Shown piece after piece: positions 33,079-44,420 of a stretch of 64,000 nucleotides of DNA. The DNA is from Platerodrilus igneus (lineage: Eukaryota; Arthropoda; Insecta; Coleoptera; Lycidae): NCBI GenBank assembly GCA_036346225.1, contig JARFIW010000588.1, forward strand, positions 4,717,501 to 4,781,500. The letters run 5' to 3'. Each line of letters starts with the position of its first letter. Position 1 is the stretch's first letter. Both the position numbers and the translations under genes were made by a program. Below the pieces are notes generated by a model. The model had not been told where the DNA came from, ran no database searches, and saw nothing but the letters and a program-made list of their open reading frames with translations.

Positions 33079-34562
33079 TAGACATTTTAAGAGACTGCCG
33101 TAACGCTGGGAATTGGAGACAAACTCATTAATCATCAGGTGTTTGTAGGTGAAATAACAGAAGAAGTTATCTTGGGAATGGATCTCATAAGAAAGGTAAA
33201 AGAACTGGTCTGACGATATCGAGGTGTGTTTGCACTGGATGATAGTGAGAAAGGAAGGACGAATGTTGTGCAACACAAGATCAATACTGGAGATGCGCAA
33301 CCGATAAGACAACACCCCAGGCACCTTACTTTGGCAAAACATAAGGAAGCCGAGCAAATTATCACCGACATAGAAGAACAGGGAGTGATTGAACCTCGAA
33401 TAGTCCATGGGCATCCCCGGTAGAACTTGTCAAGAAAAAGGATGAATCGACAAGGTTTTGTGTGGACTTCCAACGGCTAAACAATGTGACAAAGAAAAAC
33501 AGCTATCCTTTGATTTAGATTATGCAATGCCTCTGCTACTTTTGAACGTTTGGTGGAGTCGATTCTGTGTGAACTGTCCTGGCAGACATGTCTGGTGTAC
33601 CTAGACAACGTGATAGTGTTAGGCGGGTTTTTTGAAGAACACTTTAAGAACCTAGAGGAGATATTCCAAAGATTACGCGGGGCAAACCTTACCTTGAGCC
33701 CCAAGAAATGTCACCTATTTGGAAAAGAGGTAAAATACCTAAGACATGTCGTTTCGGGGACCGGAATAAGAGCTGACCCTGACAAGATAAAAACGGTACA
33801 AGAGTGACCTACACCAACAGATATACACCAACTACGCAGTTTTTTAGGATTTTGCACATATTACCGACGTTTTATACTTGGGTTTGCGAACATTGCCAAA
33901 CCGTTAACGAAATTAACCGAAGATGGACAAGAATATGATTGGAATGACGACTGCCACAGCGCATTTAAACAACTGAAACGGTTACTGGTTACTGAACCAA
34001 TTTTGAGTTATTCACGGATGGAGGGGAAATTTGTGTTGGATACCGATGCTAGTAACACAGCTATATGAAGCGTTCTTTCTCAGGTGCAGGACGGACAGGA
34101 AAAAGTTGTTGGATATTTCAGTATAGTCTTGTCGGGCCAGAAAGAAACTATTGTGTGACAAGAAGGGAGCTGTTAGCCTTCGTCAAATCCGTAGAGAACT
34201 TTTATAAGTACTTATACGGCCGTAAATTCCTGTTAAGAACAGACCATGCTGCACTAAAATGGTTACTGCAGTTTCGAAATTCTGAAGGGCAAGTTGCAAG
34301 GTGGATAAAACGGCTGCATAAATATGATTTTGACACAGAACATCGTGTAGAAACTAGTCATCGGAATGTAGACGCTCTGTCAAAAAGACCATGTCTAGTA
34401 GACTGCAATCATTGCTCCAAGATGGAAGAGAAATTAAGTGTCATTCAGAGAATGATGGTAACCGATGATACTTGGCAACCTAAAAAAATACGAGAAAACC
34501 AGGAGAATGACGCCGAATTGAGTGGAAAAGTAGAGGACAACGACCAGCTTGGGAAAAAATAA
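33079..34562 (+). pseudogene. Gypsy protease tail, RT and RNase H, decayed
   Basis: The protease end reads TLGIGDKLINHQVFVG then VILGMDLI. The RT start has QHKINTGDAQPIRQHPRHL and KHKEAEQIITDIEEQGVIEP. About 80 residues of fingers and palm are deleted between RLNNVTKKNSYPL (about 33500) and CNASATFERLVE (about 33530). The catalytic motif is YLDN instead of YLDD (about 33600). The connection follows (SFLGFCTYYRRFI) and then RNase H (LDTDASNTAI, RRELLAFVKSVENF, RTDHAALKWLL). Several in-frame stops are present. This is a dead enzyme. Confidence 0.8.
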
Positions 34563-35752
34563 TATTTTAAGTAGGAAGGCATACTGGGCACCGTGGGACT
34601 CCTTAGTGATTGAAAATAGAATCTTGAAACGACGCTTGAAATGCGAAGATGGCACTGAGAGACGACTTCAAGTGATAGTGCCGAAAAGCAGAGTGCCGGA
34701 AGTGGTACAGCACTTGCACGATGGTATTTCCGGAGGGCACTTTGGCGTAACAAGAACTCTCGAAAAAGTGAGAAATAGATTCTATTGGGTAAACTGCAAA
34801 GAAGATGTGAAAGAGTGGTGCTGGAAATGTGAGTTCTGTGCCTGTGGAAATGGCCCGGTTACAAAACGGAAAGCCCCAATGTGACAGTATAACGTGGGGA
34901 ATTCTTTTGAGAGAGTGGCCATTGATATAGCTGGTTCGTTTCCTGAATCAGAAAAAGGAAATAAATACATCTTGGTTGCAATGAATTATTTTACCAAATG
35001 GCCGGAGGCGTATGCTAGACCTAACCAAGAAAAGACGGTTGCAGATGTACTAGTGACGGAGTTGTTTTGTCGCTTTGGAGTTCCGTTGGAATTACACTCC
35101 GATCAAAGTCGGAACTTCGAATCAGCGTTGTTTCAAAACGTTTGCAAGCATCTTGGAATCAGGAAGACTAGAACCACGCTACTTCATCAATCGGATGAAA
35201 TAGTTGGAAGAATGAACAGGACGTTAGCCAAAGTTGTCTCTGAACATCAACGAGACTGGGACCAATATTTACATTTGTTCCTGCTGGCGTACCGATTTTC
35301 GGTACATGACAGCACAGAATACTCTCGCGCTTGCGTGATGTTAGGACGTGAATTGCGGCTACCATGTGATCTTCAGTTTGGATTTAAACCTGGAGAAAAG
35401 ATCGCAGATGAAGATTACGTTAGTAAGCTTCGTGAAAGATCAAATAACATTCACGAAGACGTCCGAAAGAATATACAGGCAGCAAGCGATCGAATGAAAT
35501 CACAATACGACACGAGAGCTCAAGAAGGTGGTTATCAATCTGGAGTTTTAGTGTGCTTGTATAATCTACAAAAAAAGCGTGGGTTGTCGCCAAAATTACA
35601 AAGACAATGGGAAGGCCCGTACGAAGTGTTAAAAAGAATTAATGATGTATGTAGTGTACCGGATCAGAAGATCTCTCCGTGGTAAACCGAAAGTGGTACA
35701 CTTTGACCGATTAACATCTTATGCTGGCAACAACCAGGAGGGACTTGGGTAA
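34549..35752 (+). pseudogene. Gypsy integrase, catalytic Glu replaced
   Basis: The zinc-binding domain is present (HDGISGGHFG, then WCWKCEFC with its Cys pair). After a stop at 34882 the core runs from 34894 with Asp in ERVAIDIAGSF and in LHSDQSRNFES. The usual VER(F/Y)NRT block reads VGRMNRT, so the third catalytic acid is Gly. The C-terminal domain ends in KPKVVHFDRLTSYAG and a stop at 35750-35752, one frame away from the core end (35685). The lineage belongs with gypsy elements having a VHFDRL-type tail. Confidence 0.8.
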
Positions 35753-35810
35753 TGAGAATGGTGTGTGAAGAGTTATTAATCGTGAGCCAAATGTAGATTT
35801 TGGGAGTTTC

Positions 35811-35995
35811 ATGGCAGCGTATGGTGGTTCCGCTAAGGCGAGATTTGGCGTTGTTGTTGAAAAACAGCAAGATCTGTTTAGAGCACCAGAAGCGTATTCC
35901 CTTGCACATTGCGTAGCTCAGGACCTGTAAATGTCAAGAGAGATAGCTATTGTTTTCAAGAAAAGGTTTGGATGTGTGGATGAATTAGTACAACA
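35811..35995 (+). pseudogene. OARD1-like macrodomain, N-terminal half
   Basis: The ATG at 35811 opens a short leader, then QDLFRAPEAYSLAHCVAQDL, one TAA, MSREIAIVFKKRFG and VDELVQ. This follows the OARD1/TARG1 class of macrodomains, which bind ADP-ribose and remove it from proteins: G/QDLF, SLAHCVxxDxxMxxGIAxxFKKxFG. The conserved Gly of MSRGIA is Glu here. The frame is cut at 35995 by a LINE and resumes at 43440. The ORF begins about 60 bp after the gypsy integrase stop, on the same strand. Confidence 0.75.
35981..35995. repeat. Left 15-bp target duplication of R1-like LINE
   Basis: TGAATTAGTACAACA here and at 43440-43454, identical. It belongs to the macrodomain coding sequence (Glu-Leu-Val-Gln). 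Confidence 0.9.
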
Positions 35996-43454: not shown

Positions 43455-43877
43455 GCAGCCAACTGTAGGAAAAGCTTTGGTCCTTCAAGATAAAAATCGT
43501 TATGTTTACTATCTGGTCACCAAAAGTTCTTTATAGCAGAGACCTAGTTATGGACATCTATGGGAGGCTTTGCTAAATCTTAAGGCTCAGATGATGGAAA
43601 ATGGAGTAACGAAACTAGCGGTGCCCAAGCTAGGCTGTGGACTGGATCGTTTAGATTGGAGGATAGTCCAAAATATGCTAGAAGTAGTTTTCCAAGAAAC
43701 CAACGTCCAGGTCCTTGTTAATTGTTATCAACAGGTTGCCTACCAAGACCAAAAAAAGAGCGTTGACTGTTATTTCCAAAGACGCGGTGGATGCACCAGA
43801 GGAGATAGCTGCCGATAACGTCATCAGTCATCGAATTGGCGTCAAAATGTATTCACAGTTACGAGACGTAACGGTTT
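43440..43877 (+). pseudogene. OARD1-like macrodomain, C-terminal half, plus CCCH zinc finger
   Basis: The reading resumes with ELVQ (duplicated target), then VLQDKNRYVYYLVTK, one TAG, RPSYGHLWEALLNLK, KLAVPKLGCGLDRLDW and VVFQETNVQVLV. This is the second half of an OARD1-type macrodomain; GCGLDRLDW is its signature loop. After about 20 residues comes C-x7-C-x5-C-x3-H (CYFQRRGGCTRGDSC, then Arg, a TAA at 43816-43818, Arg and His), the spacing of a CCCH RNA-binding finger. The stop lies within the last spacer. The frame stays open afterwards towards the polypurine tract. Confidence 0.75.
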
Positions 43878-43891
43878 TAAAGAGGGGGGGG
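43878..43891 (+). promoter_or_regulatory. Polypurine tract of gypsy element
   Basis: TAAAGAGGGGGGGG lies three bases before the LTR start TGTTGCGAGC, the usual place for the plus-strand primer of an LTR retrotransposon. Confidence 0.7.
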
Positions 43892-43894
43892 CAG

Positions 43895-44420
43895 TGTTGC
43901 GAGCTACTATTAGGCAACCCGTCAAACACACACAAGCGCCGTAGGCACTGTATATTCTCCAGGAATCGAGAATTCTTCTAGCAATTACTGGAGAATGAGT
44001 CATCCTTTTTAATTCAGAGTATATATAAGACCGCTAATAGATGCAAGAGTTAGTCTATATCAGAATGTCGAATATCGTGTAAAGTAAAAATAGTTGAGCT
44101 CTTGGAAGTCCAAGAGTATACATAAATGTTATATTATGTGTCTAATGTATATGCAGCTTGTAAAATACATAAATAGACAAAAGTGTAATAAATAAATAGT
44201 TGTGTTAGTGTTGTTAATAGACCTATGGTTAAGAATTTAGTTTAAGAAGATATTAGTGCTTGTAAATTCATTAGTGTGATAGTGCTTCATTGTTAATTGG
44301 ACGGAAAACATCTATAAATAAGGCATATACTGTTAATTAGACTTGTGAACAGTGAGCAATAAAGACTCTTGTTATTACTTGTTTTAAATTAGTGAAACGC
44401 GGTAGTAGTAGCCCGCTACA
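43895..44420 (+). repeat. 3' LTR of macrodomain-bearing gypsy element
   Basis: 526 bp starting TGTTGCGAGC and ending GCCCGCTACA, so the ends form a TG...CA inverted repeat. It contains a TATA-like GTATATATAAG at about 44018 and an AATAAA (AGCAATAAAGAC) at about 44359, in LTR promoter/poly(A) order. No matching 5' LTR was found in the window. Confidence 0.75.

What the first reader, a model, noticed from the sequence alone, without database searches (positions are those of the whole stretch)
33079..44420. A Ty3/gypsy retrotransposon carrying an OARD1-like macrodomain ORF between integrase and 3' LTR
The integrase tail stops at 35750-35752. On the same strand, 60 bp later, an ATG opens a macrodomain with QDLF, SLAHCVAQD, FKKRFG and GCGLDRLDW. 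It is followed by a CCCH finger, a polypurine tract and a TG...CA LTR. Macrodomains of the OARD1/TARG1 class bind or remove ADP-ribose and are used by several animal RNA viruses against host ADP-ribosylation. A retroelement holding one in the env position would be a captured anti-defence or RNA-related factor. I do not know of a described gypsy lineage with this layout.
Basis: partly seen in the sequence, partly recalled or inferred. Interest (0 to 1): 0.88.

Follow-up and report, generated by a model that had tools for sequence, protein, structure and literature searches.

The report
Retrotransposon with captured ADP-ribose enzyme domain
A jumping gene present in many copies in this genome, with relatives in beetles, has fused to its DNA-inserting enzyme a domain related to a host enzyme that removes ADP-ribose marks, which may let it interfere with a host silencing or repair system.

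Summary
The window copy is a broken, 5'-truncated Ty3/gypsy element whose TARG1/OARD1-class macrodomain is split by a nested LINE (body 35996-43439, 15-bp target duplication). The macrodomain belongs to the element: of 39 other copies read in the same 2.71-Gb genome, chosen by the integrase-macrodomain 5' junction, 37 continue into the 3' half without the LINE and 34 into the LTR. Nine have usable LTR pairs, seven with exact 4-bp target duplications. Proteins joining integrase and macrodomain occur in nine named species, all beetles. It is not a separate env-position ORF but a C-terminal extension of Pol, often with a CCCH finger; one frame (stops allowed) spans integrase to macrodomain in 20 of 36 copies. 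These macrodomains form one clade (32 rows, 100/99) apart from beetle host OARD1. The model matches human TARG1 (TM 0.96); the catalytic Lys/Asp pair is kept in 40 of 45 rows. Selection is purifying but moderate. Most likely use: an integrase-tethered ADP-ribose hydrolase countering host ADP-ribosylation; a targeting module is the main rival. Eight searches of an open library found no such element.

The parts
33090..33807 (+). 5'-truncated start of the element: end of protease region (by eye) and remains of reverse transcriptase, with internal deletions and stops
   Evidence: alignment to four other copies begins at 33090 and breaks near 33190 and 33512; RVT_1 E=3.9e-10 in 33514-33804
33808..34562 (+). 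RT connection and RNase H region
   Evidence: RT_RNaseH E=1.2e-17 in 34077-34559
34885..35685 (+). integrase (core and C-terminal part); the frame breaks at 35685
   Evidence: rve E=3.7e-11; 69 homologues by its C-terminal half
35686..35810 (+). end of integrase C-terminal domain (PKVVHFDRL, frame shifted) and linker
   Evidence: same linker start in relatives
35811..35995 (+). macrodomain, 5' half, with an in-frame stop at 35928-35930; the ATG is internal to the Pol frame of relatives
35981..35995 (+). LINE target duplication, left copy TGAATTAGTACAACA
35996..43439 (-). nested LINE inserted in the macrodomain; no insertion at this place in 37 of 39 other copies
   Evidence: RVT_1 and RNase H in 37308-39004; 15-bp duplication; empty site
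43440..43454 (+). LINE target duplication, right copy
43455..43728 (+). macrodomain, 3' half (GCGLDRLDW, catalytic Asp kept)
   Evidence: OARD1 4j5r E=2.9e-13; Pfam Macro E=0.0016, below its curated cut-off
43768..43824 (+). CCCH finger C-x7-C-x5-C-x3-H, stop at 43816-43818
   Evidence: zf-CCCH E=0.0034, below cut-off; a motif of this kind in 29 of 177 proteins held
43880..43894 (+). polypurine tract
   Evidence: same place before the LTR in other copies
43895..44420 (+). 3' LTR, 526 bp, TGTTGCGAGC..GCCCGCTACA
   Evidence: LTR pairs in nine other copies

Best explanation
What it is (shown; I put this part at 0.97): a decayed member of a multi-copy Ty3/gypsy LTR family in which the Pol polyprotein ends in an extra module: integrase C-terminal domain, linker of about 40 residues, TARG1/OARD1-type macrodomain, often a CCCH finger, then polypurine tract and LTR. 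The macrodomain was most simply taken up once from a cellular OARD1 gene (which host is not resolved by the tree) and has stayed with its integrase through the divergence of the sampled beetle lineages. How it most likely works (inferred; about 0.45): the module goes to the nucleus with integrase, or cut from it by the element's protease, as a catalytically competent hydrolase that removes mono-ADP-ribose from acidic residues or DNA ends. There it would undo host ADP-ribosylation at the integration complex or on element chromatin, so countering PARP-dependent repression and helping the gapped integration site to be resolved. The CCCH finger would add RNA or DNA binding.
For: Element-borne: 37 of 39 other copies, chosen by the first junction, continue into the 3' macrodomain half and 34 of 39 into the LTR; 9 usable LTR pairs among the 20 long stretches, 7 with exact 4-bp TSDs. 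Joined to Pol: one frame, stops allowed, spans integrase to macrodomain end in 20 of 36 copies (2 of these spans stop-free), and a 332-aa ORF spans integrase tail to finger in one copy that is broken elsewhere; 49 of 177 proteins held carry an integrase part and a macrodomain, 19 of them also the finger. One uptake: macrodomain clade of 32 rows, 100/99, holding all 21 rows of that tree whose protein also has integrase; all 17 macrodomain-bearing integrases used, plus the window, in one clade of 29 rows, 100/99, and no macrodomain in the proteins held for the 37 rows outside. Competence: model blocks over the macrodomain pLDDT 91-98, TM 0.96 and 1.0 A to TARG1 with ADP-ribose; Lys84/Asp125 both kept in 40 of 45 rows and, in this genome, Lys in 34 of 36 and Asp in 33 of 36 copies. 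Selection: variants shared by at least 3 copies N:S 29:23 against singletons 162:49, Fisher p=0.0026. Setting: in Drosophila several mobile elements, more up than down, change without PARP-1 (PMC7712786, passages).
Against: No activity, expression or protein processing was measured. Selection on the macrodomain is weaker than on integrase (pooled dN/dS 0.61 against 0.37; mean pairwise identity 53.5% against 69.8%), and its significance fades at higher variant-count thresholds and without CpG sites. Pooled dN/dS of the linker (0.70) lies inside the macrodomain's bootstrap range of 0.44-0.95. Five of 45 rows have lost a catalytic residue, among them Diabrotica. One sub-lineage seems to have lost the finger. 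The window's integrase groups (93/86) with four rows in which no macrodomain was seen. The PARP-1 evidence is weak: 5 elements up and 3 down among the significant ones, a further list of ten (nine of the gypsy superfamily) not significant after correction, and the authors allow an indirect cause.
Confidence: 0.5

Rival explanations
1. Targeting module: the macrodomain (and finger) at the integrase C terminus act as a reader, as the chromodomain does in chromoviruses (recalled), guiding integration to ADP-ribosylated chromatin or breaks; hydrolysis is secondary or lost.
For: Position directly after the integrase C-terminal domain; lineages with a lost catalytic Asp still keep the domain (P0092, P0094, P0091).
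Against: Catalytic Lys and Asp are kept in 40 of 45 rows, more than a pure reader needs. The seven exact TSDs show only a central TA, a local sequence preference that does not bear on chromatin.
Confidence: 0.3
2. Nucleic-acid or structural role: the module helps RNA packaging or Pol folding through the CCCH finger, the macrodomain being a scaffold.
For: CCCH motif in 29 of 177 proteins held; finger Cys and His kept in 30-32 of the 33-34 readable copies in this genome.
Against: A sub-lineage (P0101, P0103, P0110) seems to have lost the finger but kept the macrodomain; the catalytic pair is mostly kept; no selection signal of its own for the finger.
Confidence: 0.1
3. Passenger: a captured domain with no benefit to the element.
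For: Selection among copies is only moderate; singletons decay at the neutral ratio.
Against: Macrodomain frames, predicted fold and catalytic residues persist across proteins about 50% diverged; shared variants are depleted for amino-acid changes.
Confidence: 0.1
4. Host gene neighbour: the element merely landed beside a host OARD1 gene.
For: None found beyond adjacency in this one window.
Against: Same order through to the LTR in 34 of 39 other copies, same joining in nine named beetle species, LTRs outside it with TSDs.
Confidence: 0.005

Closest known systems
TARG1/OARD1 (C6orf130), terminal ADP-ribose glycohydrolase
   Same: Sequence (E about 5e-31 for P0005 against the human chains), predicted fold (TM 0.96), Lys84/Asp125 pair
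   Different: Human OARD1 is a free enzyme; here the domain is the tail of a retrotransposon Pol, often with a CCCH finger
Chromoviruses (Ty3/gypsy with integrase chromodomain; recalled)
   Same: An extra domain at the integrase C terminus
   Different: Macrodomain and finger instead of a chromodomain; no chromodomain among the Pfam matches
Epsilon-like fish endogenous retroviruses with macro domain ORFs (PMC4977317, passage citing Basta et al. 2009)
   Same: A retroelement carrying a macro domain
   Different: Vertebrate retroviruses, macro domain described as an additional ORF; no sequence compared here
Viruses with macro domains in the BFVD library, arthropod viruses among the best (Kadipiro virus VP8, thrips virga-like viruses, invertebrate iridescent virus 6 032R)
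   Same: A macrodomain in an agent of arthropods (best match Kadipiro VP8, E=2e-16, 30% identity, but whole-model TM only about 0.3)
   Different: RNA or large DNA viruses; domain in other proteins; relation to this clade not tested by tree
Errantiviruses (gypsy-type with env; recalled)
   Same: Insect Ty3/gypsy elements with something 3' of pol
   Different: No separate ORF: the Pol frame runs through the macrodomain towards the LTR

Membership tests
Ty3/gypsy LTR retrotransposon | order protease - RT - RNase H - integrase | tested here: met
   RT, RNase H, integrase in order in the window; in another copy protease (E=3e-5, just below cut-off), RNase H and integrase in order; RT was not scanned there
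Ty3/gypsy LTR retrotransposon | paired TG..CA LTRs with short target duplication | tested here: met
   nine copies with usable pairs, 7 exact 4-bp TSDs, 2 with 3 of 4 letters; the window copy itself lacks a 5' LTR
Ty3/gypsy LTR retrotransposon | primer binding site after the 5' LTR | tested here: inconclusive
   TGGTGTCAGG follows the 5' LTR in 6 of 9 copies, one letter different in 3; likeness to tRNA-Leu is recalled, not tested
Ty3/gypsy LTR retrotransposon | gag | tested here: inconclusive
   two ORFs upstream of the protease in one copy, no Pfam match
Errantivirus | env ORF between pol and 3' LTR | tested here: not met
   integrase, macrodomain, finger and LTR are contiguous in 34 of 39 copies
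Chromovirus | chromodomain at integrase C terminus | tested here: not met
   no chromodomain among Pfam matches
TARG1/OARD1 macrodomains | sequence and fold | tested here: met
   the general Pfam Macro model scores below its cut-off in the window and in 3 of 6 relatives scanned and not at all in the other 3
TARG1/OARD1 macrodomains | catalytic Lys84 and Asp125 | tested here: met
   both kept in 40 of 45 rows, near-identical rows included; the residues are named in PMC9411070 (passages)
TARG1/OARD1 macrodomains | ADP-ribose hydrolysis | not testable with these tools
   needs purified protein

The most novel reading that the evidence does not exclude
A Ty3/gypsy lineage, known here by name only from beetles, has turned a host ADP-ribose hydrolase into a lasting tail of its integrase, so that the enzyme that inserts the element also erases host ADP-ribosylation marks: an integrase-borne counter-defence against PARP-type silencing or damage signalling, in the place where chromoviruses carry a chromatin reader.
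Probability: 0.45. Interest if true: 0.87.

Novelty: new variant of a known kind. Interest (0 to 1): 0.77.

Why it matters
Integrase C-terminal add-ons such as chromodomains are known to steer where an element lands (recalled). An ADP-ribose hydrolase in that place would open a new front, ADP-ribosylation, between transposable elements and insect hosts, and the many natural copies and species allow it to be tested. It also has a practical side: databases name some of these proteins as host genes (P0097 and P0136, 'ADP-ribose glycohydrolase OARD1-like', Leptinotarsa).

Tried and rejected
Host OARD1 gene beside an element: rejected by the other copies. Separate env-position ORF: rejected, the ATG is internal to the Pol frame of relatives. 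Reading of the macrodomain as an alphavirus-type viral domain: rejected, TARG1 is far closer. The loop MSRGIA as a mark of the retroelement clade: rejected, it also occurs once among 25 host-like rows. The 25-aa 5' window piece fell outside the clade in the quick tree; with 17% of columns filled I took this as unreliable and left it out of the careful tree, together with 20 other rows (near-duplicates, long branches, some partial or diverged rows); the two Aquatica proteins were too partial for either tree. The integrase tree used 66 rows; 30 listed proteins (near-duplicates or broken models) and all with under 75 aligned residues were dropped beforehand. One of the 37 contiguous copies was left out of the selection and frame counts by a length and end rule, leaving 36. 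Searches without result: viral contigs with P0055, P0088, P0103, genome contigs with P0005. Host OARD1 in the window's own genome was sought in 16 requests, none answered, so it is not shown here. Copy number is not established: 1967 is a first-look candidate count, 40 were scored.
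Full report
Check of the observation. The 3' macrodomain piece alone (43537-43815) finds human OARD1/TARG1 in the PDB at E=2.9e-13; Pfam Macro is seen at E=0.0016, below its curated cut-off. The window copy is dead: homology to other copies starts only near 33090, RT has deletions, integrase is followed by a frame break, and the macrodomain and finger carry stops.

Is it part of the element? Yes. The junction 35600-36000 was searched in the window's own genome (2.71 Gb): 1967 candidates in the first look, 40 scored, all matching over nearly the whole query, the 39 others at 93-95% identity. 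I read those 39: 20 stretches of 9.9 kb and 19 of about 2.6-2.7 kb. The query already holds the integrase end and the macrodomain's 5' half, so those are shared by selection, and the sample cannot tell how many copies lack a macrodomain; what follows is independent. In 37 of 39 the sequence continues into the 3' half with no insertion between, and in 34 of 39 the LTR follows directly. The two exceptions are L019, and L047, which has a LINE end at the same place. Nine of the 20 long stretches have two usable LTRs; seven of the nine are flanked by exact 4-bp duplications (ATAA, ATAT, GTAT, TTAT, GTAT, ATAG, ATAT), the other two agree in 3 of 4 letters; LTR-LTR K2P distances run from 0.053 to 0.22. 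Seven of the nine units are 6.4-6.7 kb long and two are about 4.5 kb.

Is it a separate ORF? No. The first protein search, with the 3' piece, gave two hits among three candidates, both from the firefly Aquatica leii, and one of them (P0002) holds an integrase tail as well. A search with the integrase C-terminal half gave 69 proteins, of which a part go on into a macrodomain and some into a CCCH finger. A third search with an alignment of these tails gave 133 hits, the best 120 listed. Of the 177 proteins held after these searches, 49 have an integrase part and a macrodomain together, 19 of them with the finger too; 10 have macrodomain and finger only, 65 macrodomain only, 53 integrase only. 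In some of the 49 the integrase part is short (17-30 residues in P0093, P0136, P0094, P0084, P0104, P0097, P0144). The 49 come from nine named species, all beetles (Aromia moschata 18, Molorchus minor 9, Leptinotarsa decemlineata 3, Exocentrus adspersus 2, Callosobruchus maculatus 2, and one each of Gonioctena quinquepunctata, Diabrotica virgifera, Aquatica leii and Pyrocoelia pectoralis), with 11 from unnamed sources (names). Macrodomains of the same clade without an integrase part come also from Brassicogethes and Holotrichia. NCBI gene models can be spliced, so DNA matters: in this genome one reading frame, stops allowed, spans integrase to macrodomain end in 20 of 36 copies, 2 of those spans being stop-free, and one copy, broken elsewhere, has a 332-aa ORF from integrase tail to finger. 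In several relatives the frame runs on into the polypurine tract and LTR as ..RGQC... The ATG at 35811 lies where relatives have an internal Met.

Origin. In a tree of 55 macrodomains 32 rows form one clade (bootstrap/SH-aLRT 100/99); it holds the window's 3' piece and all 21 rows whose protein also has integrase, and ten rows without. The host-type OARD1 proteins of Aromia and Photinus group with each other outside it (100/88). Which host gave the domain is not resolved: the clade hangs on an open fork with flea, fly, ciliate and unnamed rows. In a tree of 66 integrases the 17 rows with a macrodomain and the window lie in one clade of 29 rows (100/99); no macrodomain is seen in the proteins held for the 37 rows outside. 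Eleven rows inside that clade show no macrodomain either, and the window's integrase groups with four of these (93/86). Several are fragments, but P0006 passes from a short tail straight to an LTR-like end, so loss, or absence before uptake, within the clade is possible. Rows dropped before both trees are told in Tried and rejected. A single uptake is the simplest reading.

Competence. AlphaFold on P0005 with 48 aligned rows gives pLDDT 91-98 over the macrodomain, mean 75.2 over all. Foldseek puts TARG1 with ADP-ribose first (TM 0.96 on the target, 1.0 A, 40% identity), DarG next at about 0.8, alphavirus domains further down at about 0.7. TARG1's catalytic residues are Lys84 and Asp125 (PMC9411070, passages). 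Both are kept in 40 of 45 retroelement rows with both letters present, near-identical rows included; the five exceptions are P0092, P0106, P0091, P0094 and P0136. In this genome Lys is kept in 34 and Asp in 33 of 36 copies. Pfam Macro scores below its cut-off in three of six relatives scanned and not at all in the other three. Against the BFVD library Kadipiro virus VP8 comes first (30% identity, low whole-model TM), followed among others by thrips-associated RNA viruses.

Selection. Pooled pairwise dN/dS in 36 copies: integrase end 0.37, linker 0.70, macrodomain 0.61 (60 resamplings, 5-95%: 0.44-0.95), finger 0.68. Most of this is decay after insertion: singletons in the macrodomain are N:S 162:49, not different from the neutral ratio (p=0.50). 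Variants shared by several copies are depleted for amino-acid changes. Fisher tests against singletons, at 2, 3, 4, 5 and 6 or more copies: 68:34 (p=0.040), 29:23 (0.0026), 13:10 (0.035), 7:6 (0.068), 3:4 (0.061); without CpG sites 62:31 (0.053), 28:20 (0.011), 13:9 (0.067), 7:5 (0.14), 3:3 (0.15). Integrase gives p=0.017 to 0.0002 in the same tests; linker and finger show no signal of their own. Across 15 proteins the macrodomain (53.5% mean pairwise identity) is better kept than the linker (40.8%; macrodomain higher in 93 of 102 pairs) and less than integrase (69.8%). So selection is likely real but moderate.

Mechanism. Shown: presence in Pol, past mobility with the element, predicted fold, catalytic residues. 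Inferred: that it acts with integrase in the nucleus as an ADP-ribose hydrolase. In Drosophila parp-1 mutants eight mobile elements are significantly changed, five up and three down, three of the eight called gypsy-superfamily by the authors; ten more go up, nine of them gypsy-superfamily, but not significantly after correction; the authors allow an indirect cause (PMC7712786, passages). That gives a possible reason for an element to erase such marks. The rival, a targeting reader in the chromodomain position, is open, and the loss of the catalytic Asp in a few lineages fits it.

Novelty. No paper on this layout was found in the open PMC library with eight searches: macrodomain + retrotransposon + gypsy + integrase (0), macro domain + retrotransposon + gypsy + insect (0), OARD1 + transposable element (3, off topic by listing), macrodomain + LTR retrotransposon (3, off topic by listing), macro domain + LTR retrotransposon (2), macro domain + integrase + retrovirus + accessory (2), macrodomain + integrase + Ty3 (0), OARD1 + retrotransposon (1, off topic by listing). 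The one relevant passage says that some epsilon-like fish retroviral sequences include macro domain ORFs (PMC4977317, passage). Subscription papers and Repbase entries were not searched.

Noticed in passing
L005 and L047 (G000:C1039, about 878-881 kb): Another copy of the element has a LINE end at exactly the same place in the macrodomain as the window's LINE; about 60 bp of the LINE end agree, then the two differ. A site-specific LINE, or a composite that moved, would explain it.
   Followed up: partly
L009, L010, L011, L013, L016, L022, L025: All seven exact 4-bp target duplications have TA in the middle, suggesting a local target preference of this integrase.
   Followed up: partly
45126-46088 (+): A 321-aa uninterrupted sarcoglycan ORF (Pfam Sarcoglycan_1 E=2.1e-53) starts 0.7 kb after the LTR; host gene or retrocopy.
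   Followed up: no
P0097, P0136 (Leptinotarsa decemlineata): Proteins named ADP-ribose glycohydrolase OARD1-like by NCBI carry an integrase part and fall in the retroelement clade: retroelement pieces annotated as host genes.
   Followed up: partly
60470-63605: Two pieces of the same RT-like protein in opposite orientation, with a GIY-YIG-like end by eye (Penelope-like, recalled).
   Followed up: no
3564-4306 (-) and 20549-21181 (+): Two copies of one DDE transposase-like ORF, by eye mariner-like (name recalled).
   Followed up: no
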